Shown here: piece after piece, positions 15,896-30,509 of the stretch
Numbering within the stretch: the first letter of the stretch is position 1
Layout of the letters: each line of letters starts with the position of its first letter
Source of the DNA: Lentzea guizhouensis
GTDB taxonomy: Bacteria > Actinomycetota > Actinomycetes > Mycobacteriales > Pseudonocardiaceae
DNA length: 64,000 bases
Assembly (NCBI RefSeq): GCF_001701025.1
Contig: NZ_CP016793.1
Location: 6,138,001 to 6,202,000, forward strand
Direction: 5' to 3'
Made by a program: the position numbers and the translations under genes
The notes under the pieces: model-generated
Seen by the model: the letters and a program-made list of their open reading frames with translations, nothing else
Databases searched by the model: none
Told to the model about the DNA's origin: nothing

Positions 15896-17479
15896 GTGCT
15901 CATTCGAGGTGAGGGCCTGACCATCGACGACGTCGCCCTCGTCGCCAGGCAGGAAGCCGTCGTGGAGCTCGACGAGGACCAGCTCGCCGAGGTCGAGCTG
16001 ACCCGGGAACGCCTGCAGAAGTGGGGCGCCGCCGGGCACCCCATCTACGGCGTCACCACGGGCTTCGGCGAGATGGTCCTCATGACCATCCCGCCCCACT
16101 TCGAGACGGACCTGCAGGAGAACCTGCTGCGGTCGCACGCCGCCGGCGGTGGTGAGCTGTTCCCCGACGAGGCAGTGCGGGCCATGCAGGTGACGCGGCT
16201 CAACTGTCTGGTCAAAGGACACTCCGGGATCGGCGCCGATGCGCTGCGCCTGATGGGCGAGCTGCTCAACCGGGGCATCCACCCGCTCGTCCCGCAGCAG
16301 GGTTCACTCGGCGCCAGCGGAGACCTGGCGCCGCTGGCACACCTCGCACTGCCGCTCATCGCCGCCGGGCGCGTGCGCACGGGCGCCGCCGTTCGCCGGT
16401 CCGCGGAGGTGCTCGCCGAGGAAGGGCTGGAGCCGGTCCGGCTGAGCTACAAGTCCGGGCTGGCCCTGGTCAACGGCACCTCGGCGATGACCGGAGTCAG
16501 CGCGCTGGCCCTGGTCAGGGCGCGGCGGCTGTTCCGGTTGGCGCTGTGGGCGTCCGCGGCGTTCATCCAGGTGGTGGGCGGGTCCACCGGGGCGTTCGAC
16601 GAGCGCGGGCACGCGTTGAAGAACCACCGCGGGCAGAGCCAGGTCGCCGCGTCGATCACGCGGCTGCTGACCGGCAGCCGGCTGACCCGCGAGCACGCCG
16701 AGATCATGGCCCTGGTCGGCGCGAAGGCCGGCGGTGACGAGGTCGCGCCCGCCGACGACTACCTGCAGAACGCCTACACCCTGCGCTGTGTCCCGCAGAT
16801 CCTCGGGCCCGTGCTGGACACCATGGCCTACTGCCGGCGGCTCGTCGAAGAGGAACTGAACTCCTGCAACGACAACCCCCTCATCTTCGACACCCCGGAG
16901 ACCGTCTTCCACGGTGGCCACTTCCACGGCCAGTACGTGGCCATGGCGTCCGACTTCCTGAACATCGCGCTCACCGAGATCGGCGTGCTGGCCGAGCGGC
17001 AGCTCAACCGGGTGCTCGACCCCCACCTCACCAAGAGCCTGCCCGCGTTCCTCGCCCTCGGGCAGGAAGGCCTCTACTCCGGGCTGCAGGGCTCGCAGTA
17101 CCTGGCCACCAGCATCGCCTCGGAGAACCTGGACCTGGCGGCGCCGTCGTCGATCAAGTCGATCCCGTCCAACGGCCAGAACCAGGACGTGGTGAGCATG
17201 GGCCTCATCGCGGCCAGGAAGTCCCTGCGCCTGATCGACAACGTCAACGTCATCGTCTCCGTCCTCGTGGCCGCCTGTCACCAGGCCGCCACCATCACCG
17301 GCGTCGAACGGTTCAGCCCACCCGTGCGCGGGCTGCTCGAACTGCTCGCCGCGAAGGTGCCCGGTTACCGCGACGAGGGCATCGCCTCGGACTTCCTGGC
17401 CGCGGTCAGGAACACCGTGCTCGCCGACGAGGCCGACGCGTTGCTCCCCGCCCTCGACATCCCCGCCGACGCGACATGA
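15896..17479 (+). CDS. MIO-dependent aromatic amino acid ammonia-lyase / 2,3-aminomutase
   Basis: First gene of the phosphoramidate operon, 527 residues. GTG 15896 was chosen because GAGGAG (15884-15889) sits six bases upstream; longer starts lack such a site. The Ala140-Ser141-Gly142 triad in GSLGASGDLAPL cyclises to the MIO electrophile that removes or moves the alpha-amino group. The catalytic loop Tyr51 (YGVTTGFGE) and ELNSCNDNPL are intact. TTGFGEM, FHGGHFHGQYVAMA and NRVLDPHL resemble bacterial tyrosine aminomutases of enediyne and chondramide pathways more than histidase. The product could be a beta-aryl-beta-alanine or an aryl acrylate; sequence alone cannot decide mutase versus lyase. 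The 248-base upstream gap is locally AT-richer and should hold the operon promoter. Confidence 0.88.
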   Translation: MLIRGEGLTIDDVALVARQEAVVELDEDQLAEVELTRERLQKWGAAGHPIYGVTTGFGEMVLMTIPPHFETDLQENLLRSHAAGGGELFPDEAVRAMQVTRLNCLVKGHSGIGADALRLMGELLNRGIHPLVPQQGSLGASGDLAPLAHLALPLIAAGRVRTGAAVRRSAEVLAEEGLEPVRLSYKSGLALVNGTSAMTGVSALALVRARRLFRLALWASAAFIQVVGGSTGAFDERGHALKNHRGQSQVAASITRLLTGSRLTREHAEIMALVGAKAGGDEVAPADDYLQNAYTLRCVPQILGPVLDTMAYCRRLVEEELNSCNDNPLIFDTPETVFHGGHFHGQYVAMASDFLNIALTEIGVLAERQLNRVLDPHLTKSLPAFLALGQEGLYSGLQGSQYLATSIASENLDLAAPSSIKSIPSNGQNQDVVSMGLIAARKSLRLIDNVNVIVSVLVAACHQAATITGVERFSPPVRGLLELLAAKVPGYRDEGIASDFLAAVRNTVLADEADALLPALDIPADAT

Positions 17480-18294
17480 CCATGCGCGAACGGCACGTGC
17501 GCAACGCCGCGCGGCTCGGTGCCCAGGACGTCGTCGTCGCGGCCTACTCGGGCTCCGGTGCCGCCTTGCTGAGCAACATCCTGGTGGAACTGGGGCACAC
17601 GTTCATCGACCCGTACCTCGACGAGATCGGGGAAGACGGACGACTGCGCGGGCCCAGCGACGAGGAGCTGCGGCGGTATCGCGACCGGATCGCCCACACC
17701 ACTGGGTCTGGCGGCCGGAGGTTCTTCAAGAACCACCTGCCACCTGATCACTTCCCCGACATCGCCACCCAAACCGTGGTGCTCCTCGTGCGAGACCCGA
17801 GGGACGCCCTGCACTCGTCCTACCGGTTCTTCCAGGGGTTCGCCGACACCCTGCTGTCCTACCTCACCATCGACGACGTGAGCTTCCTGGAGTTCCTGGA
17901 CGACAAGGGCGCGGTGGGGGAGCCTCCGGTCACCATCGACGGCTGGGTGGACTTCTACCGCGCCTGGGCCGAGGCGGCGCAGCGCACGTCCTGCTCGGCT
18001 GTCGTCCGCTTCGAGGAGCTGAAGACCAGCCCCGTGGCCGCGGTGACCCGGCTGCTGGAGACGCTCGGCCTGGACACCGGTCGCGCCGCCGTCGAACGGG
18101 CTGTCGAGCGCAGCAGCTTCGAGAAAATGCGGGCGCACGAGGAGAAGGTCGCCGGCGGCAGCACGGCCATGATCATGCGCCGCGGCCAGGTCGACGAGTG
18201 GCGGGAGTGGTTCGGCGACAACGAGTTGTCGGACCGGTTCCGGGCGCCGCACATGATCGAGACGGCAGCGCGTTTCGGCTACCGGATCTGTTGA
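17476..18294 (+). CDS. Sulfotransferase-fold protein, candidate phosphoramidate transferase
   Basis: This 272-residue protein starts at ATG 17476 overlapping the lyase stop (ATGA); a second ATG at 17482 is possible. The sulfotransferase fold is shown by the 3'-phosphate-binding motif VVLLVRDPRDALHSSYRFF and the late RRGQVDEWREWF (RxGxxxDW-like). The 5'-phosphosulfate loop, normally YPKSGTTW with a catalytic Lys, here reads AAYSGSGAALL: the Lys is replaced by Gly. Sulfotransferases recognise 3'-phospho-nucleotide donors. The last enzyme of this operon is predicted to make 3'-phospho-CDP-phosphoramidate, so I infer that this protein may transfer the phosphoramidate group. Ordinary PAPS-dependent sulfation remains the alternative. 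Confidence 0.8.
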   Translation: MTMRERHVRNAARLGAQDVVVAAYSGSGAALLSNILVELGHTFIDPYLDEIGEDGRLRGPSDEELRRYRDRIAHTTGSGGRRFFKNHLPPDHFPDIATQTVVLLVRDPRDALHSSYRFFQGFADTLLSYLTIDDVSFLEFLDDKGAVGEPPVTIDGWVDFYRAWAEAAQRTSCSAVVRFEELKTSPVAAVTRLLETLGLDTGRAAVERAVERSSFEKMRAHEEKVAGGSTAMIMRRGQVDEWREWFGDNELSDRFRAPHMIETAARFGYRIC

Positions 18295-18316
18295 TCGTCC
18301 GAACAGGAGGACCTGC

Positions 18317-19123
18317 ATGGTCAGCGAGTTCACCGGCCCGCCTTCCGTCCTGCCCCCTGCGGTCGACTACTCGCCGTTCGCCACCACGTACCAGGACCGG
18401 GCCGACTACGTTCCGTCCGTTGTGGACGCTCTGCTGCGAGTGGCCGAGGTGCGCCGGGGAGATGCGGTCTGCGACATCGGAGCCGGTTCCGGGCACCTCA
18501 CCGAACCCCTGCTGCAGCGCGGGTTCCACGTCGACGCGGTGGAGCCGACACCCGCCATGCGCGAGCTGGGTGAGCGGCGGACCCACGGGTACCCGCACGT
18601 GCGCTGGTACGAGGGCAGAGGCGAAGCGTCGGGGCGGGCATCCGAGGCGTACGCGTTGGTGACCTTCGGCTCCTCGTTCAACCTGACCGAACGCCCCTTG
18701 GCGCTCGCGGAGACGGCACGCATCCTGCGCGACGGCGGGTACTTCGCGTGCCTGTGGAACCACCGCGTGCTCGACGACCCGTTGCAGGCGCGCATCGAGG
18801 AGCTGATCCACGACCGGATTCCCGTTTACAGCTATGGAGTCCGTCGCGCCGACCAGACCGACGTCATCGTGCGGAGCGGCCTGTTCGAGACGCCGGTCGT
18901 GGTGTCCGGCACCCAGGTGTTCCGGCTGCCGAGCCAGGCCTGGTGCGACGCGTGGGCCTCGCACTCGACCGTCGGTCAGCAGTCGGGCAACGGGTTCACC
19001 GGCCTGGTGGACGAGATCCGCGAGCTCGTGCGCGCCGAGGCCGGAGACTTCATCGACGTCCCCTACACCACCAAGGCGTGGGTGGCCCGGCTTTCCCGGG
19101 GTGACAAGGACGCCCCGCGGTGA
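18317..19123 (+). CDS. SAM-dependent methyltransferase of the phosphoramidate operon
   Basis: This 268-residue class I methyltransferase starts at ATG 18317, preceded by an AGGAGG site at 18305-18310. Motif I is VCDIGAGSGHLTEPLLQRGF, then VDAVEPTPAMRELGERR and RILRDGGYFACLWNHR, followed by a helical C-terminal half. In Campylobacter the phosphoramidate genes are flanked on this same side by methyltransferase genes (Cj1419/Cj1420), thought to O-methylate the phosphoramidate. By position this protein may do the same here. It could instead methylate the aromatic scaffold. Its stop overlaps the glutamine kinase start by 4 bases (GTGA). Confidence 0.85.
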   Translation: MVSEFTGPPSVLPPAVDYSPFATTYQDRADYVPSVVDALLRVAEVRRGDAVCDIGAGSGHLTEPLLQRGFHVDAVEPTPAMRELGERRTHGYPHVRWYEGRGEASGRASEAYALVTFGSSFNLTERPLALAETARILRDGGYFACLWNHRVLDDPLQARIEELIHDRIPVYSYGVRRADQTDVIVRSGLFETPVVVSGTQVFRLPSQAWCDAWASHSTVGQQSGNGFTGLVDEIRELVRAEAGDFIDVPYTTKAWVARLSRGDKDAPR

Positions 19124-21474
19124 CCGCACCGCTGGTCCGGCTCGGGACCAAGGCGGACACGCTGGACCGGTTGCGGCCGTTCCTGACCACGGCCCGGATC
19201 CTGCCGCTGGTGCACTTCACCTCACGGGAGTGGCGGGACAGGCCGGACCGGCTGCTCGCCGGACTGCGCCGCCACGAGTGGGCGGCCGGACCCGTGATGG
19301 TGCGCAGCAGCGCGACCACCGAGGACACCGGGACCGACTCCAACGCTGGCCGGTTCCGGTCGGTGCCCGCGCGCAACCAGGACGAGCTCGCCGCGGCCGT
19401 GGACGAGGTGTTCGCCTCCTACGGCCGGGTCGACGCGCAGGACCAGGTGCTGATCCAGCCGCTGCTCGAACGCGTCCGGGCCAGCGGGGTGGCGTTCTCC
19501 TGCGACCCCAACAGCGGCGCGCCCTACCGGGTCGTCAACTGGAGCGCGACCGGCAGGACCGACGCGGTGACCGGCGGCGGCAGCGCGGAGCTGCACATCT
19601 CCTACGGGGCGGCCTGGGCGGACCCGGCCGAGGCACCCGACCCGCAGGTCGGCGCGGTGTGGGAGCTGCTCGCCGAACTGCACAACCTGCTGGGCGAGCA
19701 GCGGCGCCTGGACATCGAGTTCGCGTTCTCCGACCTCGGCGAGCTGATCCTGTTGCAGGTCAGGCCGCTGACGGTGACCAAGGTCGCCGTGGCCGCCGAG
19801 GAACATCGCGCGACGTTGACCGCCACCGCCCGGCAGATCACCGAGACCACCCGGTCGCGTTCCCGCGTGCTCGGCCACCGCGCGGTCTACGGCGTGATGC
19901 CCGACTGGAACCCCGCCGAGATGATCGGGCTGCGGCCCCGGCCGCTCGCGGTGTCGTTGTACCGCCACCTCATCACCGACCAGGTCTGGGCGGCCGCCAG
20001 AGCCCGGTACGGCTACCGGGACCTGACCGGCACGCGGCTGATGGTCCAGTTCTCCGGGTTGCCCTACGTCGACGTGGCTGCCAGCTTCACCTCGTTCGTG
20101 CCCCGTGAGGTGCCCGACGAGCTCGCCGGCCGGCTCGTCGGCCACTGGCTGGACCAGCTGGTGGCCAAGCCCTACCTGCACGACAAGGTCGAGTCGCACA
20201 TCGCCGTGTCCGCCGGCACGTTCAGGACCGCGCAACGCCTGGAAGCCCTGGCCGGGTTCAGCGCCGGCGAACGCGACCGGCTGGCGGGCTTCCTGCGCCG
20301 GTTCACCGGCCAGCTGGTGCGCGGCGACCTGTGGGAGCAGGACATCGCCCGGCTGCGCCTGTTGAACGAGGCTGACAACGGCGAGACGCACGCGGCCGGG
20401 TGCAGCGCCGACGACATCGGCTGCTGTGGTCCGGCGCTGGTCGCCCGGCTGGACGTCTGCGCCGCCTACGGCTCCAGCCCGTTCGCCGCCTTGGCCAGAG
20501 CCGCCTTCATCGCCACTGACCTCCTCGACGACCTCGTGCGCGAAGGTGTTCTGTCCCCGGAGGACCGGGCCCGTTTCATCGGGGGTCTCCGGCTGGTCGC
20601 CAGTGAGATGCGCCGGGACTTCGCCGTGCTCGACCGGGCGGTGTTCCTCAAGCGCTACGGCCAGCTGCGCCCAGGAACCTACGACATCCTCTCGCCCCGC
20701 TACGACGAGACGCCCGAGCGCTACTTCGACTGGTCGGCGCAGAACCGCCCGGCACCCGGTGACCACGCCACGCGTCGCCCGTTCGAGCTGAGCGGCAAGC
20801 AGCGGCGGCAGGTCGAGGCCCTGCTGGTGCGCGAAGGCCTGACCTTCGACGTCGCCCGGCTGATGGACTTCATGACCACGGCGATCCGCGGACGTGAGCA
20901 CGGCAAGCTGGCCTTCACCTCGGTCCTCGGTGACGTGCTGACCGGGGTGAGACGCCTCGGTGAGCGGTCCGGGTGCGGCGTCGACGACATGAGCTACCTC
21001 GACGTGACCACCCTCGCCACCCTCACCGGCGACCCGGCCCACGACCTGCCGGTGCTGCGCGAGGTGGCGGCGCGGGGACGGGCGGCCCACGCCGTCAGCC
21101 AGACCGTGGTGCTGCCGCCGCTCGTCACCGGCCCCGCCGACGTCAGGAGCTTCGCCCTGCCGCAGATCCGCCCGAACTTCGTCACCAGGGCCAGGGCGAC
21201 GGCACGGGTGGCCCTCGTCGACGTCGGCGACACCCCGGACGGCGCCATCGTCCTGGTCGCGAGCGCCGACCCCGGCTACGACTGGCTGTTCACCCGCGGC
21301 ATCGCCGGACTGGTGACCGCGTTCGGCGGCGCGAACTCGCACATGGCCATCCGGGCCCTGGAGCTGGGCATCCCGGCGGTGATCGGCGCGGGCACGGCGC
21401 TGTTCGACCAGTGGTCGCGGGCGAACGTGCTCGAGCTCGACGCGGCCAGCGGCCTGGTCACGGTGATCGCGTGA
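19120..21474 (+). CDS. L-glutamine kinase homologue (Cj1418-like, PEP-synthase fold)
   Basis: This 784-residue protein starts at GTG 19120 in a 4-base overlap. The N-terminal ATP-grasp domain shows VMVRSSATTEDTGTDSNAG and RRLDIEFAFSDLGELILLQV. The C-terminal swivelling domain carries the phosphohistidine motif GGANSHMAIRALELGIPAV with His741. It lacks the PEP/pyruvate-binding barrel expected of true PEP synthase or PPDK and has an unrelated helical middle. Cj1418 of Campylobacter has this layout and phosphorylates the amide nitrogen of L-glutamine (ATP to AMP + Pi). Followed by Cj1417-, Cj1416- and Cj1415-like genes in the same order, this is the committed step to phosphoramidate. Substrate is inferred from gene order, not tested. 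Confidence 0.88.
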   Translation: MTAPLVRLGTKADTLDRLRPFLTTARILPLVHFTSREWRDRPDRLLAGLRRHEWAAGPVMVRSSATTEDTGTDSNAGRFRSVPARNQDELAAAVDEVFASYGRVDAQDQVLIQPLLERVRASGVAFSCDPNSGAPYRVVNWSATGRTDAVTGGGSAELHISYGAAWADPAEAPDPQVGAVWELLAELHNLLGEQRRLDIEFAFSDLGELILLQVRPLTVTKVAVAAEEHRATLTATARQITETTRSRSRVLGHRAVYGVMPDWNPAEMIGLRPRPLAVSLYRHLITDQVWAAARARYGYRDLTGTRLMVQFSGLPYVDVAASFTSFVPREVPDELAGRLVGHWLDQLVAKPYLHDKVESHIAVSAGTFRTAQRLEALAGFSAGERDRLAGFLRRFTGQLVRGDLWEQDIARLRLLNEADNGETHAAGCSADDIGCCGPALVARLDVCAAYGSSPFAALARAAFIATDLLDDLVREGVLSPEDRARFIGGLRLVASEMRRDFAVLDRAVFLKRYGQLRPGTYDILSPRYDETPERYFDWSAQNRPAPGDHATRRPFELSGKQRRQVEALLVREGLTFDVARLMDFMTTAIRGREHGKLAFTSVLGDVLTGVRRLGERSGCGVDDMSYLDVTTLATLTGDPAHDLPVLREVAARGRAAHAVSQTVVLPPLVTGPADVRSFALPQIRPNFVTRARATARVALVDVGDTPDGAIVLVASADPGYDWLFTRGIAGLVTAFGGANSHMAIRALELGIPAVIGAGTALFDQWSRANVLELDAASGLVTVIA

Positions 21475-22079
21475 GCCGGCGGATCGGGATCACCCAGCGG
21501 TGCGTGGACGACGAACCGACCGGTGAACGCCGCTGGGCCCTCGACGCCCGCTGGTGCGAGTTCCTGACGGCCTGTGACGTCGTCGCCGTGCCGTTGCCGA
21601 ACATCGCCGCGGCAGCCGTTCAGATGGCGGAGGAGCTGAGCCTCGACGGGTTCCTCTTCACCGGCGGCGGCGATGTCGTGGAAGCGGGCGGGAAACACCC
21701 CGAACGCGACCTGACCGAGCGGACCCTGCTGGCGCTGGCGATCCGGGAGAACCGGCCGGTGCTCGGCGTGTGCCGAGGCATGCAGCTGATCGCCGTCGCG
21801 CTGGGGGCACGGCTGAGACCGGTGGCAGGACACGTTTCCACCCGCCACACCATCACCTCCGGGGAGGGCAGGCGCGTGGTGAACAGCTACCACGACCTCG
21901 CGGTCGACCGGCTTCCGTCTGTGCTGGAAGTGACGGCGTGGTGCGGGGACGTCGTCGAAGCGGTGCGGCACAAGAGCGTTCGTGTCGAGGGAATCATGTG
22001 GCATCCGGAACGGGAACCCGAGCACGCCGCGCAAGACCTGCTCATGGTCCGTCGCTTGTTCCAGGTGGAGAACCGATGA
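21471..22079 (+). CDS. gamma-Glutamyl-CDP-amidate hydrolase homologue (Cj1417-like class I amidotransferase)
   Basis: This 202-residue protein starts at GTG 21471 overlapping the kinase stop (GTGA). It has the class I glutamine amidotransferase / gamma-glutamyl-GABA hydrolase triad: nucleophile Cys101 in LGVCRGMQLI, and His178 and Glu180 in MWHPERE, plus the oxyanion strand FLFTGGGDV. In the Campylobacter pathway the equivalent Cj1417 cleaves CDP-L-glutamine to L-glutamate and cytidine diphosphoramidate. Its length and position between the kinase and cytidylyltransferase genes match that role. No synthetase partner for classical amidotransfer is nearby. Confidence 0.88.
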   Translation: MSRRIGITQRCVDDEPTGERRWALDARWCEFLTACDVVAVPLPNIAAAAVQMAEELSLDGFLFTGGGDVVEAGGKHPERDLTERTLLALAIRENRPVLGVCRGMQLIAVALGARLRPVAGHVSTRHTITSGEGRRVVNSYHDLAVDRLPSVLEVTAWCGDVVEAVRHKSVRVEGIMWHPEREPEHAAQDLLMVRRLFQVENR

Positions 22080-22819
22080 AGGCCATCGTCCTGGCTGCGG
22101 GCAACGGGGCCCGGATGAGGCCCCACACCGACGACCGGCCCAAGTGCCTGATCGAGCTCAACGGCCGCACACTGCTCGACCGCCAGGTGTCGGCACTGCG
22201 CGCAGGTGGTGCCGACGAGATCGGCGTCGTCACCGGCTGGCAGGGCGCGCGGTTCGCCGGTCTCGGCTTGCACACGTTCGAAAACCCGCGGTGGGCAGAC
22301 AGCACGATGGTCGAGTCGCTCGCAGCCGCTGGCGACTGGCTGACCGACGAGCCGGTCATCGTCTCCTACGGCGACATCGTCTTCTCCGCGGCGACCGTCC
22401 GCAGTCTCGTGCGATCGGCGGCTGAGGTCGCTGTCGCCTACGACACCGAATGGGAAACCGTGTGGCGGCAACGGTTCGACGACCCGTTGAGCGACGCCGA
22501 GACCTTCAAGATCGACGCCGACGGATGGGTGACCGACATCGGGACGAGACCGCGCAGCCTCGCAGACGTGCGCGGGCAGTACATGGGCTTGTTGCGCCTC
22601 ACCCCACCGTCCTGGGCAGTGCTGCGGAATGCGCGAGCCGCCGGCGCGGAGATCGCGGCACTCGACATGACCGGCCTGCTCGGTCACCTGATCCGCACCG
22701 GCCTGCGCGTTGCCGGCGTGCCGAACGACGGCCCGTGGTGGGAGTTCGACAGTCCGTCCGACGTGGAGCCCGGTCTGCGCGTGCTCGACAGCCTGGACGC
22801 CGAGCAGGAAGGCGAGTGA
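22076..22819 (+). CDS. CTP:phosphoglutamine cytidylyltransferase homologue (Cj1416-like)
   Basis: This 247-residue nucleotidyltransferase starts at ATG 22076 overlapping the previous stop (ATGA). Signature loop KAIVLAAGNGARMRPHTDDR is followed by PKCLIELNGRTLLDRQ, the metal Asp in IVSYGDIVFS, and DTEWETVWRQRFDDPLSDAE, a stretch I associate with phosphocholine/phosphoglutamine-type cytidylyltransferases. In the proposed pathway it joins CMP from CTP to N-phospho-L-glutamine, giving CDP-L-glutamine and pyrophosphate. Its stop overlaps the kinase-like gene start by 4 bases. A sugar-nucleotide substrate is the alternative but no sugar genes adjoin it. Confidence 0.88.
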   Translation: MKAIVLAAGNGARMRPHTDDRPKCLIELNGRTLLDRQVSALRAGGADEIGVVTGWQGARFAGLGLHTFENPRWADSTMVESLAAAGDWLTDEPVIVSYGDIVFSAATVRSLVRSAAEVAVAYDTEWETVWRQRFDDPLSDAETFKIDADGWVTDIGTRPRSLADVRGQYMGLLRLTPPSWAVLRNARAAGAEIAALDMTGLLGHLIRTGLRVAGVPNDGPWWEFDSPSDVEPGLRVLDSLDAEQEGE

Positions 22820-23352
22820 CCGCAGTGGAATCCGGAGTCGTGTGGATCACCGGTCTGTCCGGGACGGGCAAGAGCACGGTGACGTCGATCGTCAGCAGCA
22901 GGCTGATTGAGGCGGGCCGTCGCCCGGTGGTGCTGGACGGTGACCGGATGCGCCGGATCATGCCGACCACACCCGGCTACACCGAAACCGAACGGCGCAA
23001 GGTCGCCGAGTTCTACTCGCGGCTCGCGCACGAGCTGGCGGACCAGGGACACCTCGTCCTGTGCGCCACCATCTCCCTGTTCCACGACGTGCACCGCTGG
23101 AACCGGGAGAACATCGAGCACTACCTCGAAATCTGGCTGCGCGTGCCACTGGCGGTCTTGAAGGACCGCCCCGGCCGAGCAGCCTTCTACGACCGGGGGA
23201 GTGCCGGCCAAACCGCGCTGCGCAACGTGGTCGGCGTGGACGAACCAGCGCAGTTCCCCGGCGAGGCCGACCTGGTCATCGACAACTTCGGCGACACCAC
23301 CGCCGCCGACGCCTCCGACCAGATCGTCAACGCCGTCCTCGGGCGGCACTGA
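22816..23352 (+). CDS. Cytidine diphosphoramidate kinase homologue (Cj1415-like, CysC family)
   Basis: This 178-residue protein starts at GTG 22816 (GTGA overlap). The P-loop is GLSGTGKST (residues 13-21), followed by VVLDGDRMRRIMPTTPGYT and LVLCATISLFHDVHRWNREN, matching the adenylylsulfate kinase (CysC) fold. The APS kinase signature near the C-terminus (FTGIDDPYE-type) is altered to VVGVDEPAQFPGEADLVID. No ATP sulfurylase or sulfate genes are present. In Campylobacter, Cj1415 phosphorylates the 3'-hydroxyl of CDP-phosphoramidate, by analogy to PAPS formation. That activity fits the neighbours here. The product would be a PAPS-like donor for the sulfotransferase-fold protein. Confidence 0.87.
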   Translation: MTAVESGVVWITGLSGTGKSTVTSIVSSRLIEAGRRPVVLDGDRMRRIMPTTPGYTETERRKVAEFYSRLAHELADQGHLVLCATISLFHDVHRWNRENIEHYLEIWLRVPLAVLKDRPGRAAFYDRGSAGQTALRNVVGVDEPAQFPGEADLVIDNFGDTTAADASDQIVNAVLGRH

Positions 23353-23353
23353 G

Positions 23354-24553
23354 GTGCACACCGCACAGCAGCCGACGTGGACCAGGTCGGACCGCCGGCT
23401 CGCGGCCGCCACCGCGGTCCTGCTCGGAACGAGCATGGGCATCCTCTCCTACGGTCAGCCCGTCCTGCTCAAGGCGATCATCGAGGCCCGCTCGATCCCG
23501 ACCACCCGGCTCGACCTCGCCGCCAGCCTGCAGTGCCTGGTCAACGCACTCGCCGCAGCCGTCGTGGTCGTCCTGTGCCGCCGGATGCCCGCACGGCACG
23601 TGGCGGCCGGCGGCGCCCTCGCGTGCGCGGTGGCGGCGGTCCTGCTCGCCTCGACCCGCAACGCATGGCAGCTCTACCTGACGATGTCGTTGCTGGGCAT
23701 CGCGATCGCCGGTTGCGGCACCCTCGTCGTGAGCACGTTCGTCATCAAGACCGCGCACAACAGGGACCGGGTGCTCTCCGTCGCGTTCATCGGGTCGAGC
23801 GCGGGCGGGATGATCTGGGCACCGATCGTGAGCTGGGGCCTCACCGCGGGCGGCCTGGCCGGGGCCGCCGTGCTCCTCGTGCTCGGCTTCACCCTGCTGG
23901 TCGCGCTCAACGCCCTGCTCTTCCTGCGCCTGCCCCCTCACCCGAGTGTGACCGAGGCACCGCCGGCGGACGACGGCGTCACCCTGCGGCAGGCGGCCCG
24001 CACCGCCGGGTTCTGGGCACTGCTCCTCGGCAGCACCCTGCTCACCCTGACCCAGCTCGCGGGCGTCTACCACGTCCTGTTCATCTGGCAGGACTCCGAC
24101 ATCGGCACTCCGGCGATGCCCGGCGCCGTGGTGGCCGCCTTCGCCGGGATCGGCCGGGTGGCAGCGGAACTGCTGTTGCGCTCACTGTCCACTGTGTACC
24201 TCGCTGGGGTGACCTGCGCGCTCCAAACGGCCGGGTTCGTCCTGCTCGCCCAAGGCGGCACCATGCCGGTGCTGTTCCTCGGCTCGGCCCTGCTCGGAAT
24301 CGCGGTCGGCAACAGCTCCCTGGTGGTGCTGCTGCTGACCCCGGAGGCGTTCGGGCTGCGCGACATCGAGCGGATCGCCGGAACGATCTACCTGTGGACC
24401 GGGATCGGCGCGTCGTGCGGCGCGATCGTCCTCGGCCTGCTGCGCCACGAAGCCGGCGGCTACCGGCTCCCGGTCCTGTTCTTCGCCTTGCTGTCCCTGC
24501 TCGCAGGAGTGCTGCTGTCGCAGTGCAGACGCCGCACGCCCGCGAAGCCCTAG
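23354..24553 (+). CDS. MFS transporter, probable exporter of the operon product
   Basis: This 399-residue protein starts at GTG 23354, one base after the previous stop. It shows about 12 hydrophobic helices, with a cytoplasmic break near residues 195-215 (PPHPSVTEAPPADDGVTLRQ) that splits two six-helix halves. The first loop carries RRMPARHVA. The set resembles monocarboxylate/oxalate-type MFS proteins. As the last gene of a coupled biosynthetic operon it most likely exports the final product and may confer self-resistance. It overlaps the convergent FAD monooxygenase gene tail-to-tail by 4 bases, so no terminator separates them. Confidence 0.88.
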   Translation: MHTAQQPTWTRSDRRLAAATAVLLGTSMGILSYGQPVLLKAIIEARSIPTTRLDLAASLQCLVNALAAAVVVVLCRRMPARHVAAGGALACAVAAVLLASTRNAWQLYLTMSLLGIAIAGCGTLVVSTFVIKTAHNRDRVLSVAFIGSSAGGMIWAPIVSWGLTAGGLAGAAVLLVLGFTLLVALNALLFLRLPPHPSVTEAPPADDGVTLRQAARTAGFWALLLGSTLLTLTQLAGVYHVLFIWQDSDIGTPAMPGAVVAAFAGIGRVAAELLLRSLSTVYLAGVTCALQTAGFVLLAQGGTMPVLFLGSALLGIAVGNSSLVVLLLTPEAFGLRDIERIAGTIYLWTGIGASCGAIVLGLLRHEAGGYRLPVLFFALLSLLAGVLLSQCRRRTPAKP

Positions 24554-26013
24554 TGGCGCAGATTTTCGGCCTCACCGAACCACCTGCTGACAGCCTGATC
24601 GAGCTCATCTCGTCCACCGGCCCAGGCCACGACGCCGTCCGGTCGAACCAGGACGCCGTCCAGTCCGAGGTCGTCGCGAGCAGGTCCGGCCGCATGGCGG
24701 ACCCGGCTCGGCCGGCGGCGCGCGACATGGCCGAGATCGCCGCTGAAGTCGAGCAGGACGCCGCGCCCGTCCTGCAGCAGTTCGCCCAGGCGGGTGCCGT
24801 TCTCAAGGCAGAAATCCGGGGCGTTGCGGCCGACCAGCGGGTGCTCACTGCCCAGGTCGTACCGGTTCGACAAGCCCGACACCTGCTCGAACACGTAGGT
24901 CGTACCGTCCCTGGTCGCCAGCAGGGCACGGATCATGTCTTGGAGTGCCGCCGCGTTCTCGCCCGGTCGCATGACCGCCACCTGGGCACGTGACCAGTCG
25001 AGCACACGGGCCCCGACCGGGTGGCGTTCGCCGGTGTAGGTGTCGAGAAGGCCGTCGGACGCGTGCCCGTGCACGGTCGCGGCCAGCTTCCACCCCAGGT
25101 TCAGCGCGTCACCGATGCCGAGGTTGAGACCCTGTCCGCCGAGCGGGGAGTGGATGTGCGCGGCGTCGCCCGCGAGCAGCACCCGGCCGCGCCGGTAGGT
25201 CGTCGTCTGCATCGCGCGGTCGGTGAAACTCGCGGCCAGGTGGACCTCGTCCAGCGTCACGTCGGTGCCGGAGATGCGGCGCAGCACGTCCTGCAGGTGG
25301 TCGCGGGTCGGTGGCCGCGAGCGGTCGAACGCACCGCCGTCGAAGTCCATGAGGCCGATGTGCCCCTCCACCGGCGTCCGCAGGTACATCCCGCGCGGCG
25401 TGAGGGTGAAACCGGCGCTCAGCTTCTCCGGGTCGGCGATCGTGGCGAACGCGGTGTAGCCGGTCAGCTGTGGCCCGGTACCGACGAACTCGAAGCCCGC
25501 CAAGCCGCGCACCGCGCTGCGGCCCCCGTCGCAGCCGACCAGCCACCGAGCCGGGAACACCCGCCCGCCCGACCTCGCTTCCACGCCCTCCTCGTCCTGC
25601 ACGACGGCGTCGACCACCACGCCGCGTTCGACCCGCACGCCGAGTTCGGCCGCCCGGTCGGACAGGACCTGCTCGACCGCCTCGAGAGTCGTCATCACCC
25701 CTTCCAGTGCCGGACTGGGCAACGTCGCGATGTCGACGTTCGCCGGATCGAGCGACATTCCGGCGAAGTGGCTCAGGTTGCGCGGAGAGGTGTGCGGATC
25801 GTCGGCGACACCCAGGGCGGACAGCATGCCCCGCCGGTAGAACGCCTCCACCGACCCCGCGTTCAGACCGCGCATCCCGAGCGGAAGTGCTTTCCAGGCC
25901 GTGCGCGGGTCCGGTTCCCGTTCGAGGACCAGCACGTCGCACCCGGCGAGGCCGAGCTCGCAGGCCAGGAACAACCCGACCGGGCCGCCGCCCACGATCA
26001 CAACGTCATGCAT
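24550..26013 (-). CDS. FAD-dependent aromatic hydroxylase (PHBH/polyketide hydroxylase family)
   Basis: This 487-residue protein starts at ATG 26013 with GGAGGACCTCC just upstream. Conserved motifs: GGGPVGLFLACELGLAGCDV (FAD-binding), LVGCDGGRSAVRGLAG (DG motif), VLLAGDAAHIHSPLGGQGLN (GD motif). A thioredoxin-like C-terminal domain is typical of RdmE/MtmOIV-type enzymes. Such enzymes hydroxylate aromatic or polyketide substrates with NAD(P)H and O2. It is in an operon with the SGNH hydrolase gene (14-base gap) and converges on the phosphoramidate operon. It could hydroxylate the aryl part of that product or act separately. Confidence 0.9.
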   Translation of the reverse strand: MHDVVIVGGGPVGLFLACELGLAGCDVLVLEREPDPRTAWKALPLGMRGLNAGSVEAFYRRGMLSALGVADDPHTSPRNLSHFAGMSLDPANVDIATLPSPALEGVMTTLEAVEQVLSDRAAELGVRVERGVVVDAVVQDEEGVEARSGGRVFPARWLVGCDGGRSAVRGLAGFEFVGTGPQLTGYTAFATIADPEKLSAGFTLTPRGMYLRTPVEGHIGLMDFDGGAFDRSRPPTRDHLQDVLRRISGTDVTLDEVHLAASFTDRAMQTTTYRRGRVLLAGDAAHIHSPLGGQGLNLGIGDALNLGWKLAATVHGHASDGLLDTYTGERHPVGARVLDWSRAQVAVMRPGENAAALQDMIRALLATRDGTTYVFEQVSGLSNRYDLGSEHPLVGRNAPDFCLENGTRLGELLQDGRGVLLDFSGDLGHVARRRPSRVRHAAGPARDDLGLDGVLVRPDGVVAWAGGRDELDQAVSRWFGEAENLRH

Positions 26014-27281: not shown

Positions 27282-30200
27282 ATGGACGGAGGTGCACAGC
27301 TCCGCGTCTCACTGCTCGGCCCCTTCGAGGTGTCCCGCGGTGAGAACGTCCTGCCCGTCGCGGGCGCGCGGCTGCAGGGCCTGCTCGTGCGGCTGGCACT
27401 CGCGGCGGGCCGCCCGGTCGAGCCGGGTGTGCTGGTCGACGCGATCTGGGGCGACGACCCGCCTGCCGGACCTGCCTCCGCCCTGCAGTCGCTCGTCACC
27501 CGGCTGCGCCGGGCGGTCAGCCCTGCCGATGCAACAGCTGACGTCGTCGTCCAGGTCCCGGGCGGATACCGGCTGGCGGTGGACGCCGAGGTGGACGCGC
27601 TGCGCTTCGAACGGCTCAGCGCTGCCGGTCGGGAACGCCTGCGCGCAGGTGACCCGGAGGCTGCGAGGTCCGACCTCGCCGACGCGGTGGCGCTGTGGGG
27701 CGACCACCCCGGCGCCGAACCCGCGGCCATCGCCGCGGTGGCCCCCGCGGTCGCCACCCGGCTGGCACACGTGTCGATCGAGGCGGTCACCGACCTCGCG
27801 GAGGCCGAGTTGGCACTGGGCCAGACCGAAGCGGCCGCCGTGCGGCTGACCAGGTTGCTGGCCGACCACCCGGTCCACGAGCGGGCCGCCGCGGTGCTGA
27901 TGGACGCACTCGCCGCTGCGGGGCGTCAGGCCGAGGCACTCACCGTCTACGAACGCGTCCGCGTCGCACTGGCCGACGTGCTGGGCGCCGATCCGGGAAC
28001 CGCCTTGCGGGAACGCCACCTGCGCCTGCTGCGCCCCGACGCGGGAACCTCGGCGCCCGCAGCCGACGTGCCGCGGGCGCCCCGGCCGTCTCACCTGCCG
28101 GCACCGCTGACCAGCTTCGTCGGCCGCGCCGACGAGCTCGCCCGCGTCAAGTCGCTGCTGGCCACCAATCGGCTGGTCACCGTGCTCGGTCCTGGCGGTG
28201 CCGGCAAGACCAGGCTGGCCCTGGAGGCCGCCCGCCGGCACCGCGACGACCACCGCGACGGCGCCTGGCTCGTCGACCTCGCGCCGGTCACCGATCCCAC
28301 CAAGGTCGCCGCGGCAGTGCTCGCCGCGATCGGGCTCCGTGGCGCCGCGGTGCTCGACGCCCGCAAGCGGATCGACGGCGACGAACTGGACGTCCTCGCG
28401 GGCGAGCTCGGCGGCAAGCGGTGCCTGCTGCTGGTCGACAACTGCGAGCACCTGATCGACGCCGTCGCCCATTTCACCGCCGAGCTGCTGTCCCGTTGCC
28501 CTGAGCTGCGGGTGCTGGCCACCAGCCGCGAACACCTCGCGGTGCACGGCGAAGCCCTCGTACCGCTGGGCCCACTCGCCCTGCCCGAACCCGGCGACGG
28601 CGTCGAGCAGGCGCGGCGGGCGGCCTCGGTCCGCTTGTTCGTGGAACGCGCCGCCGCGGTGCGACCCGGTTTCGAGGTCGACCCTTCAACGCTGCCGCTG
28701 ATCAAATCCGTCACGCGTGGCCTGGACGGCATGCCGCTGGCCCTCGAGCTGGCCGCGGCCCGGTTGCGGACGCTGTCACTGTCCGATGTGGCCGAAGGGC
28801 TCTCCGACCGGTTCCGGGTGCTCGCCACCGGCAGCCGCACCGCACCACCCCGGCACCGCACCCTGCGTGCGGTGATCGCCTGGAGCTGGGACCTGCTCGG
28901 CGAACACGAACGCGTTGTCGCGCAACGGATCGCCACCTGCCCCGGCGGCGTCACGCCCGCCTCCGCCGCCGCACTGTGCGCTGGCACCACCGTGCCGGCC
29001 GCCGAGGTTCCCCCGCTGCTCGACGCCCTCGTCGACCGGTCGCTGCTCCAGTGCGCACCGGGCACCGGCCGCTACCGCATGCTGGAGACCATCCGCGAGT
29101 ACGGCATCGGACAGCTGACCGGCATCGGTGACATGGCCACGACCCGCGATCTGGCCGCCTCCTACTTCACCGGCCTGATGGCGCGCCACGACCCGCAGCT
29201 GCGCGGACCTGACCAGCTGACGGCCATGGAGGTCATCAGCGCCGAGTACGACAACATCGTCGCCGCACTGAGCCACCTGTGCGCCGCCCACGACTCCCGT
29301 GGCGCGATCGCACTCGCCCTGAACATGACCTGGTACTGGCAGATGTCCGGCGGTCACCCGGACGGTGCACGGTGGCTGGCCGAGGCGCTGGCGGTGCCCG
29401 GCGGGCAGCCGAGCCCGGAGTGGGACTGTGCCCGAGCCGTCCACCTGCTCAACCGAGCGAACGTGGTCCTCGGCATCACCACCGAGCAGGCCGCGCACGA
29501 CCGCAACGAGATGCGCGAGCTGGCCCACCGCCTGCTCGGTCACCACCGGTTGCCCGGCCACCACCGCGTGCGCGGGCCGATCCTGCTGGCACTGCTCGAC
29601 GACGAAGCCGCGCCGGCGAGCTTCCAGGGTCTCGCCGACGGTGAGGACGTGTGGCTGTCCGGACTGGCCCACATGTTCCTCGGTGAGATCGCCGAGAACG
29701 CGGGCGAGCCCGACCGGATGAGGGTCCACGTGGAGGCGTCCCTCGCCTGCTTCCGCCAGACCGGTGACCGCTGGGGCCAAGCCGCCACGCTGCCGATGCG
29801 CGCCCAGCTCCGCCGGTACGACGACCTGGACGGGGCGCTGGCCGACCTGGCGGAGGCGCGGACCCTGGCCGGCCAGTTCGGGGTGCTGAGCCCCGGCGAC
29901 CAGCTCCACCAGGACCTGCGGTGGATCGACCTGCACCTGCGGCGCGGCGACACCGGCCAGGCGCTCGCGGTGCTCCACCTCGCCCGTGACCGGGCGCTGC
30001 ACTCGTCCTCTGTGGACATGCGGTTCCTCGTCGACGTCCGAGAAGCCGACGTGCGGCTGCGGCTCGGCGACCTCGACCGGGCCGCCGACCTGCTCGACGA
30101 CGCCGAACGACGGTTGCGCGACGACACCATCGCCCCCGCGGACCACGCCCGGACCCTGGTCAGCAGCACACGGGCCGCTCTCCGCGTGGCACAAGGCGAC

Positions 30201-30509
30201 CTGTCCGGCGCCGATACCGCGCTGCGGCAGGCCTACACGACCGCGCTGGCGACCCGCGAGATGCCGAACCTGGCCTCGGTGGCGGTGACCGCGGCCGCAC
30301 TCGCCGCAGGGAAAGGCCAGCCGCACGACTCCGCCGTCCTGCTCGGACTCGCGGCCCGCCTGCGCGGTGCGCACGACACCACCGACCCGCAGATCCGTGA
30401 ACTCACCCGTCAGGACGCGGAGTTCGCCGCCGCGTACGCGAAGGGCTGGGAGACGGATCCGCGGACAGCAGCGGAAGAGCTCGCTGCCAGGCTGTGCGAC
30501 TCGGGGTGA
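27282..30509 (+). CDS. AfsR/SARP-type transcriptional regulator with NB-ARC and TPR-like domains
   Basis: The real start is ATG 27282 (MDGGAQLRVSLLGPFEV); the frame is open far upstream but without coding character. 1075 residues. Order: OmpR-like winged helix (~5-95, SALQSLVTRLRRAV), bacterial transcriptional activation domain (~100-245), AAA/NB-ARC ATPase with Walker A GPGGAGKTRLALEAA (~305) and Walker B LLLVDNCEHL (~390), then helical TPR-like repeats to the end. This is the design of large SARP activators such as AfsR, often pathway-specific. It is divergent from the esterase/hydroxylase pair and close to the phosphoramidate operon, so control of these is a reasonable inference. Confidence 0.9.
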   Translation: MDGGAQLRVSLLGPFEVSRGENVLPVAGARLQGLLVRLALAAGRPVEPGVLVDAIWGDDPPAGPASALQSLVTRLRRAVSPADATADVVVQVPGGYRLAVDAEVDALRFERLSAAGRERLRAGDPEAARSDLADAVALWGDHPGAEPAAIAAVAPAVATRLAHVSIEAVTDLAEAELALGQTEAAAVRLTRLLADHPVHERAAAVLMDALAAAGRQAEALTVYERVRVALADVLGADPGTALRERHLRLLRPDAGTSAPAADVPRAPRPSHLPAPLTSFVGRADELARVKSLLATNRLVTVLGPGGAGKTRLALEAARRHRDDHRDGAWLVDLAPVTDPTKVAAAVLAAIGLRGAAVLDARKRIDGDELDVLAGELGGKRCLLLVDNCEHLIDAVAHFTAELLSRCPELRVLATSREHLAVHGEALVPLGPLALPEPGDGVEQARRAASVRLFVERAAAVRPGFEVDPSTLPLIKSVTRGLDGMPLALELAAARLRTLSLSDVAEGLSDRFRVLATGSRTAPPRHRTLRAVIAWSWDLLGEHERVVAQRIATCPGGVTPASAAALCAGTTVPAAEVPPLLDALVDRSLLQCAPGTGRYRMLETIREYGIGQLTGIGDMATTRDLAASYFTGLMARHDPQLRGPDQLTAMEVISAEYDNIVAALSHLCAAHDSRGAIALALNMTWYWQMSGGHPDGARWLAEALAVPGGQPSPEWDCARAVHLLNRANVVLGITTEQAAHDRNEMRELAHRLLGHHRLPGHHRVRGPILLALLDDEAAPASFQGLADGEDVWLSGLAHMFLGEIAENAGEPDRMRVHVEASLACFRQTGDRWGQAATLPMRAQLRRYDDLDGALADLAEARTLAGQFGVLSPGDQLHQDLRWIDLHLRRGDTGQALAVLHLARDRALHSSSVDMRFLVDVREADVRLRLGDLDRAADLLDDAERRLRDDTIAPADHARTLVSSTRAALRVAQGDLSGADTALRQAYTTALATREMPNLASVAVTAAALAAGKGQPHDSAVLLGLAARLRGAHDTTDPQIRELTRQDAEFAAAYAKGWETDPRTAAEELAARLCDSG

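What the first reader, a model, noticed from the sequence alone, without database searches (positions are those of the whole stretch)
15896..24553. Phosphoramidate biosynthetic operon in an actinomycete, colinear with Campylobacter Cj1418-Cj1415
Seen: four consecutive coupled genes with the folds and order of the Campylobacter phosphoramidate pathway (PEP-synthase-like kinase without the PEP barrel, class I amidotransferase, cytidylyltransferase, CysC-like kinase), preceded by a methyltransferase as in Campylobacter. Known: those enzymes make N-phosphoglutamine, CDP-glutamine, CDP-phosphoramidate and its 3'-phosphate for capsule O-methyl phosphoramidate. Inferred: here the same donor serves a secreted small molecule, since the operon adds a MIO enzyme, a sulfotransferase-fold protein and an MFS exporter and has no capsule genes. 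A phosphoramidate natural-product pathway built on this chemistry would be new to me.
Basis: partly seen in the sequence, partly recalled or inferred. Interest (0 to 1): 0.95.

Follow-up and report, generated by a model that had tools for sequence, protein, structure and literature searches.

The report
Actinomycete phosphoramidate natural-product operon
A soil-type actinomycete carries gene types like those Campylobacter uses to make a rare phosphorus-nitrogen group for its capsule, here beside small-molecule genes and a remodelled sulfotransferase-like enzyme that probably attaches the group to a tyrosine-derived product.

Summary
Window 15896-24553 (+) is one tightly packed operon: tyrosine 2,3-aminomutase-like MIO enzyme, sulfotransferase-fold protein (ST), methyltransferase (MT), glutamine-kinase-like PEP-synthase relative without PEP barrel (GlnK), class I amidotransferase (GAT), nucleotidyltransferase (CyT), CysC-like kinase (CdK), MFS exporter. 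Of 83 GlnK loci, GAT occurs in 81, CyT 79, CdK 66, MT 62, ST 15; in 15 control loci around ordinary PEP-synthase-like genes GAT, CyT and ST occur in none. Nine actinomycete loci share the order ST-MT-GlnK-GAT-CyT-CdK, while neighbours differ (aminomutase, NRPS plus halogenase, ketosynthase, P450): a portable tailoring cassette rather than a capsule locus. The new point is ST, the genome's only PF00685 match. Its 105 closest relatives keep the 3'-phosphate residues, but the donor-loop lysine is gone in 104 of 104 ungapped rows. I infer that it takes 3'-phospho-CDP-phosphoramidate, a PAPS look-alike, as phosphoramidyl donor. Proposed product: (O-methyl) phosphoramidate of beta-tyrosine. No biochemistry was possible, and Campylobacter sequences were not compared directly.

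The parts
15896..17479 (+). MIO enzyme, tyrosine 2,3-aminomutase-like (start GTG 15896; the frame is open from 15794)
   Evidence: TIGR03832 514.3 bits, cut-off 501; histidine ammonia-lyase models below their cut-offs (scanned from 15794); best solved match tyrosine aminomutase 2ohy, 421.7 bits
17476..18294 (+). ST: sulfotransferase-fold protein, proposed phosphoramidyl transferase
18317..19123 (+). MT: SAM methyltransferase, proposed O-methylation of the phosphoramidate
   Evidence: PF08241 41.8 bits; relative in 62 of 83 GlnK loci
19120..21474 (+). GlnK: L-glutamine kinase-like (ATP-binding + swivel His domains, no PEP barrel)
   Evidence: NF004508 766.6 bits; His741 kept in 82 of 82 ungapped rows of 89
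21471..22079 (+). GAT: gamma-glutamyl-CDP-amidate hydrolase-like class I amidotransferase
   Evidence: best family NF045546, below cut-off; C101/H178/E180 in 82 of 82 rows
22076..22819 (+). CyT: phosphoglutamine cytidylyltransferase-like
   Evidence: PF12804 74.1 bits; solved matches: MurU-type uridylyltransferase 8hhd first, CTP:phosphocholine cytidylyltransferase 1jyk second
22816..23352 (+). CdK: cytidine diphosphoramidate kinase-like, CysC fold
   Evidence: PF01583 93.5 bits, NF004041 134.2 bits; WNR motif
23354..24553 (+). MFS exporter
   Evidence: PF07690 59.7 bits; a 74% identical stretch ends the Umezawaea cluster

Best explanation
The operon makes and exports a small molecule bearing a phosphoramidate group and works like the Campylobacter donor pathway. 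Steps inferred: GlnK makes N-phospho-L-glutamine from ATP and glutamine; CyT joins it to CMP from CTP; GAT cleaves off glutamate, leaving cytidine diphosphoramidate; CdK phosphorylates its 3'-hydroxyl. The resulting 3'-phospho-CDP-phosphoramidate resembles PAPS, and the sulfotransferase-fold ST transfers H2N-PO2- from it to the phenol of (beta-)tyrosine made by the MIO aminomutase. MT adds the O-methyl group (timing unknown) and the MFS protein exports the product. Shown here: gene content, order, family membership, conserved catalytic residues, co-location across phyla, family-wide change of the ST donor loop. Inferred: every reaction, the acceptor and the product. My estimates: donor pathway 0.85; ST as the transferase 0.65; beta-tyrosine-type acceptor 0.5.
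For: Co-location in 83 loci: GAT 81, CyT 79, CdK 66, MT 62, ST 15. Fifteen control loci around sub-cut-off PEP-synthase-like genes: no GAT, CyT or ST; CdK hits in two (172.7 bits, the genome's strongest APS kinase, and 23.7 bits); MT hits of 20.3 and 17.7 bits. Catalytic residues kept. ST-MT-GlnK-GAT-CyT-CdK in the same order and strand in 9 actinomycete loci, whose GlnKs form one clade, SH-aLRT 100. ST: 105 proteins of at least 100 bits, window included, have G 91, A 11, S 2 and one gap at the Lys position and keep the RDP Arg and the Ser in 105; 15 weaker hits have K in 12. ST is the genome's only PF00685 match. Source names of 12 of 120 listed GAT relatives read N5-(cytidine 5'-diphosphoramidyl)-L-glutamine hydrolase. 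The Umezawaea locus has A-PCP-TE and Trp_halogenase genes between CdK and MFS.
Against: No biochemistry. GAT is below the NF045546 cut-off (so are six of six GATs from other loci). ST was found in only 15 of 83 loci, so most loci must use another transferase or have it elsewhere. The KTH His is replaced in L027, L028 and L029 among the nine core loci, and in L034, L059 and L095. The Trp position keeps Trp in L031, L034 and L095. TIGR03832 is passed by only 13 bits. G581 has a GlnK over the NF004508 cut-off with no partner in the 20 kb fetched, so that model alone does not prove the pathway. Knock-outs of Cj1419/Cj1420 (recalled as the methyltransferase-type neighbours) gave no apparent capsule change (PMC11800397 passage), so the MT role is a guess. 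Some control-free choices: the 80 loci are the best of 403, and HMMs were trained on the same loci.
Confidence: 0.62

Rival explanations
1. The donor pathway is as above, but ST is an ordinary PAPS sulfotransferase and the phosphoramidate is transferred by another protein, so the product is both sulfated and phosphoramidated.
For: ST has the SULT fold and keeps the 3'-phosphate site; the genome has APS kinases, so PAPS should be present; 68 of 83 loci manage without a detected ST.
Against: Donor-loop Lys absent in 104 of 104 ungapped family rows and in 15 of 15 aligned cassette-linked STs, while weaker relatives keep it in 12 of 15; ST stands next to the donor genes in 9 loci; no other transferase gene lies in the operon.
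Confidence: 0.15
2. The cassette decorates a cell-wall or capsular polysaccharide, as in Campylobacter.
For: The same gene types do this in Campylobacter (PMC11800397, PMC3907429 passages).
Against: No glycosyltransferase among the operon genes and ten flanking genes scanned between 9898 and 32209 (the rest of the window was not scanned); partner genes are aminomutase, NRPS, halogenase, ketosynthase, P450 and an MFS exporter.
Confidence: 0.08
3. The MIO enzyme is an ammonia-lyase giving p-coumarate or cinnamate rather than beta-tyrosine, so the product is an aryl-acrylate phosphoramidate.
For: Lyases and aminomutases share the fold; a Streptomyces P-N metabolite called cinnamoylphosphoramide exists (PMC6429109, PMC6212887 passages).
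Against: Passes the tyrosine 2,3-aminomutase equivalog cut-off and its closest solved structure is tyrosine aminomutase; the Umezawaea relative sits with A-PCP-TE and a halogenase, which I recall as the C-1027 arrangement.
Confidence: 0.25
4. Ordinary sulfur metabolism: PEP-synthase-like, sugar nucleotidyltransferase and APS kinase genes that happen to sit together.
For: Automatic names say adenylyl-sulfate kinase and sulfotransferase.
Against: as above.
Confidence: 0.03

Closest known systems
Campylobacter jejuni O-methyl phosphoramidate pathway (Cj1415-Cj1418 with transferases Cj1421/Cj1422)
   Same: Same four enzyme types in the same order (per-gene roles partly recalled), with a methyltransferase neighbour (recalled)
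   Different: Small-molecule partner genes instead of capsule genes; SULT-fold transferase candidate; exporter
C-1027-type beta-tyrosine supply (tyrosine aminomutase SgcC4; recalled)
   Same: Tyrosine aminomutase; in Umezawaea also adenylation and carrier domains and a flavin halogenase
   Different: Phosphoramidate cassette added; no enediyne genes among the genes scanned
Cytosolic sulfotransferases (SULT) and glycopeptide sulfotransferases StaL/Teg12
   Same: Fold, 3'-phosphate site, KTH-type His in the window protein
   Different: Donor-loop Lys replaced and, in most of the actinomycete family, Trp replaced
Nucleocidin/ascamycin sulfamylation (PMC10946740 passages)
   Same: Installs an amino-oxyacid ester using sulfotransferase-fold proteins
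   Different: Needs PAPS genes and nine genes of its own cluster; no glutamine kinase in the passages seen
(S)-Cinnamoylphosphoramide, phosphoramidon/talopeptin and other Streptomyces P-N metabolites (PMC6429109 passages)
   Same: Actinomycete P-N natural products
   Different: No link to a glutamine-kinase cassette appeared in my search listings; whether this route makes any of them is unknown

Membership tests
Phosphoramidate donor pathway (Cj1415-Cj1418 type) | Kinase with PEP-synthase-like ATP-binding and phosphohistidine domains and no PEP barrel | tested here: met
Phosphoramidate donor pathway (Cj1415-Cj1418 type) | gamma-Glutamyl-CDP-amidate hydrolase, curated equivalog cut-off | tested here: not met
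   Best family NF045546 but 103.3 of 250 bits; six of six GATs from other loci also only 92-117 bits. I therefore claim 'works like', not strict membership in that model
Phosphoramidate donor pathway (Cj1415-Cj1418 type) | Class I amidotransferase with intact Cys-His-Glu triad adjacent to the kinase | tested here: met
   82 of 82; 81 of 83 loci
Phosphoramidate donor pathway (Cj1415-Cj1418 type) | Cytidylyltransferase using CTP | tested here: inconclusive
   Fold family only; nucleotide preference not decided
Phosphoramidate donor pathway (Cj1415-Cj1418 type) | CysC-fold kinase distinct from APS kinase | tested here: met
Phosphoramidate donor pathway (Cj1415-Cj1418 type) | Direct sequence similarity to Cj1415-Cj1418 | not tested
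Phosphoramidate donor pathway (Cj1415-Cj1418 type) | N-phosphoglutamine and CDP-phosphoramidate 3'-phosphate formed | not testable with these tools
   needs enzymes and 31P NMR
PAPS sulfotransferase (PF00685) | Fold and 3'-phosphate-binding Arg/Ser (roles recalled) | tested here: met
PAPS sulfotransferase (PF00685) | Lys of the 5'-phosphosulfate loop, YPKSGTTW (role recalled) | tested here: not met
   Gly26 in the window protein
Tyrosine 2,3-aminomutase | TIGR03832 equivalog cut-off | tested here: met
   514.3 of 501 bits, a narrow pass

The most novel reading that the evidence does not exclude
A sulfotransferase-fold family has switched donor from PAPS to 3'-phospho-CDP-phosphoramidate. With MT, GlnK, GAT, CyT and CdK it forms a portable six-gene cassette that puts O-methyl phosphoramidate groups on unrelated actinomycete scaffolds: beta-tyrosine, halogenated aryl-NRPS products, fatty/polyketide products and P450 products. 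This would be an undescribed class of natural organophosphorus compounds.
Probability: 0.5. Interest if true: 0.92.

Novelty: new variant of a known kind. Interest (0 to 1): 0.82.

Why it matters
A 2022 review calls the glutamine kinase C. jejuni-specific (PMC9561416 passage). These data put a kinase of this type together with GAT and CyT in Actinomycetota, Bacillota, Pseudomonadota, Spirochaetota and other phyla, with CdK in 66 of 83 loci. If right, there is a genetic hook for P-N natural products, a testable phosphoramidyl transferase with an explicit residue prediction, and a way to ask where natural methyl-phosphoramidate (pesticide-like) compounds come from. In Campylobacter itself the decoration of the capsule with this group is listed as still to be elucidated in vitro (PMC12409886 passage).

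Tried and rejected
Sulfur reading: rejected. Capsule reading: no glycosyltransferase among the operon and ten flanking genes scanned. NRPS and halogenase elsewhere in the genome: the closest match to the Umezawaea A-PCP-TE is 47% identical and about 1.1 Mb away; the strong Trp_halogenase match is about 3.1 Mb away; so I treat the window operon as the short version. NF004508 over cut-off as sole proof: rejected because of G581. Trp-to-Leu as proof of a pyrimidine donor: weakened, since L031, L034 and L095 keep Trp. Promoter/terminator scan: nothing above chance. Matching contig lengths of ST and GAT records as a proxy for linkage: 17 lengths shared between 105 ST and 120 GAT records; the GAT list shows 120 of 3913, so this is a lower bound. 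Lentzea NPDC058450 has its listed MIO on another contig than its ST and GAT, which counts against a constant MIO link or reflects clustering at 90%. The first control set (L002-L004, L007-L023: 20 loci of 2.6-4.0 kb) was too short and was replaced by 15 regions of 11-20 kb picked from the best sub-cut-off matches, not all of them. Gene calling by GC frame mis-called several cassette genes; tblastn and HMM results were used instead. PF13469-type sulfotransferases were not searched in the genome. The protein search finds only relatives sharing short exact words, so the family of 105 is a minimum and its sharp edge may partly reflect that. Literature: searched open-licence PMC papers; in the rows listed none describes a glutamine-kinase cassette in an actinomycete natural-product cluster, but listings were capped (for example 20 of 310) and subscription papers and preprints were not searchable, so absence from print is not shown. 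PMC5938747 and PMC5629633 are not held.
Full report
Anatomy. The window lies in a 9,997,872-base single-contig genome whose closest named protein matches are from Lentzea. Eight genes run on the + strand from 15896 to 24553: MIO, ST, MT, GlnK, GAT, CyT, CdK, MFS. Five of the seven junctions are 4-base overlaps. GlnK has the ATP-binding and swivel domains only; solved PEP synthases match it only at residues 694-761. GAT has the Cys-His-Glu triad, CyT is a MobA-like NTP transferase, CdK has the CysC fold.

Is it the donor pathway? I could not obtain Campylobacter sequences, so the test is indirect. A scan of a collection with one genome per species gave 403 stretches encoding a GlnK relative, of which the best 80 were kept. 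With the window's own locus and two relatives' loci this makes 83. HMMs built from the window genes and their hits in these same loci find, within 9 kb of GlnK and above 30 bits, GAT in 81, CyT in 79, CdK in 66, MT in 62 and ST in 15; several loci are cut by contig ends and a few hits are weak. A longer fetch of one relative (L110) adds ST and MT there; the other (L109) has neither. Fifteen control regions around ordinary PEP-synthase-like genes, two of them from this same genome, hold no GAT, CyT or ST; CdK hits occur in two (172.7 bits, which is the genome's strongest APS kinase, and 23.7 bits), MT hits are 20.3 and 17.7 bits. GAT triad 82 of 82; GlnK His741 82 of 82 ungapped of 89 rows, a few of which are sub-cut-off relatives; CyT Lys23 and Asp100 79 of 79. 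NF045546, named gamma-glutamyl-CDP-amidate hydrolase, is the best family for the window GAT and the only one reported at 1e-15 for six of six other GATs, always below its cut-off. Twelve of 120 listed GAT relatives carry the source name N5-(cytidine 5'-diphosphoramidyl)-L-glutamine hydrolase; most others are called PuuD-like or putative glutamine amidotransferase, or have no name.

It is not sulfur metabolism. The genome has three stronger APS kinases, 233, 185 and 182 bits against 93.5 for CdK. These three read ISPFR or IAPFR where the 66 CdK rows read TiS followed by a WNR motif that the three lack.

Cassette and scaffolds. ST-MT-GlnK-GAT-CyT-CdK stands in this order on one strand in nine loci: the window, Umezawaea (L024), Streptomyces cellostaticus (L025), Saccharothrix (L026), Actinomadura (L027), two Amycolatopsis (L028, L029), Kibdelosporangium (L030) and S. 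caatingaensis (L086). Their GlnKs form a clade, SH-aLRT 100, quick method. What differs is the neighbours. MIO is next to ST in the window and L024; in L024 A-PCP-TE and Trp_halogenase genes stand between CdK and the MFS gene. L025 and L026 have a ketosynthase upstream of ST. L030 has an AMP-binding protein and an aldehyde-dehydrogenase-family protein; L086 has similar genes (one by blastp; one by eye) about 6-8 kb upstream of ST, plus a KS-ACP protein and a thioesterase. L028 has a P450 and a cyclase-like protein with counterparts in L029. In L027 no frame passed my filter directly upstream of ST and a transposase-like frame, judged by eye, lies beyond it. That these neighbours belong to one pathway is inferred. 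The cassette kinase is rare near the source: 3 of 149 relatives over the cut-off, 3 of 397 genomes of the order, and 2 of 394 of the class, one of which (G581) shows no partner in the 20 kb fetched; the window's own genome is counted in each.

Product. The aminomutase call is moderate: TIGR03832 514.3 over 501, best solved match tyrosine aminomutase. The simplest product of the window operon is beta-tyrosine O-phosphoramidate, perhaps O-methylated by MT. Known Streptomyces P-N compounds such as cinnamoylphosphoramide, reported to inhibit BChE (PMC6429109 and PMC6212887, passages), show that such groups occur; no link to this cassette is claimed.

Literature seen as passages only: PMC6429109, PMC10971088, PMC6212887, PMC7762395, PMC6681047, PMC11800397, PMC12409886, PMC3907429, PMC11419355, PMC10919079, PMC9561416, PMC10946740. 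The primary glutamine-kinase and CDP-phosphoramidate-kinase papers were not held and are known here from reference lists and recall.

Noticed in passing
L036-L103, largely Lachnospiraceae and Oscillospiraceae: The glutamine-kinase gene set is common in gut-type Bacillota and occurs in many other phyla, although a review calls the kinase C. jejuni-specific.
   Followed up: partly
L024:6592-19450: Umezawaea endophytica version of the operon with an A-PCP-TE protein and a Trp_halogenase-family gene between CdK and MFS.
   Followed up: partly
L047, L057, L093, L109, L110: A second Pseudonocardiaceae GlnK clade with other gene orders; ST in three of the five, with Ser at the Lys position in the two aligned (L047, L093); ABC-transporter-like frames nearby, judged by eye.
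   Followed up: partly
L111/L112 (G581): GlnK-like protein over the NF004508 cut-off with no GAT, CyT, CdK, MT or ST in the 20 kb fetched; probably another function.
   Followed up: no
window 27291-30509 +: Large BTAD-domain (AfsR/SARP-type) regulator downstream of the operon; a link to the operon is untested.
   Followed up: no
window 24550-26013 -: FAD monooxygenase whose best family is rifampin monooxygenase, below cut-off (360 of 800 bits), convergent with the MFS gene.
   Followed up: no
L025:6801-8159, L026:7099-8337: Single ketosynthase gene of similar sequence (by eye) directly upstream of ST in two genera.
   Followed up: no
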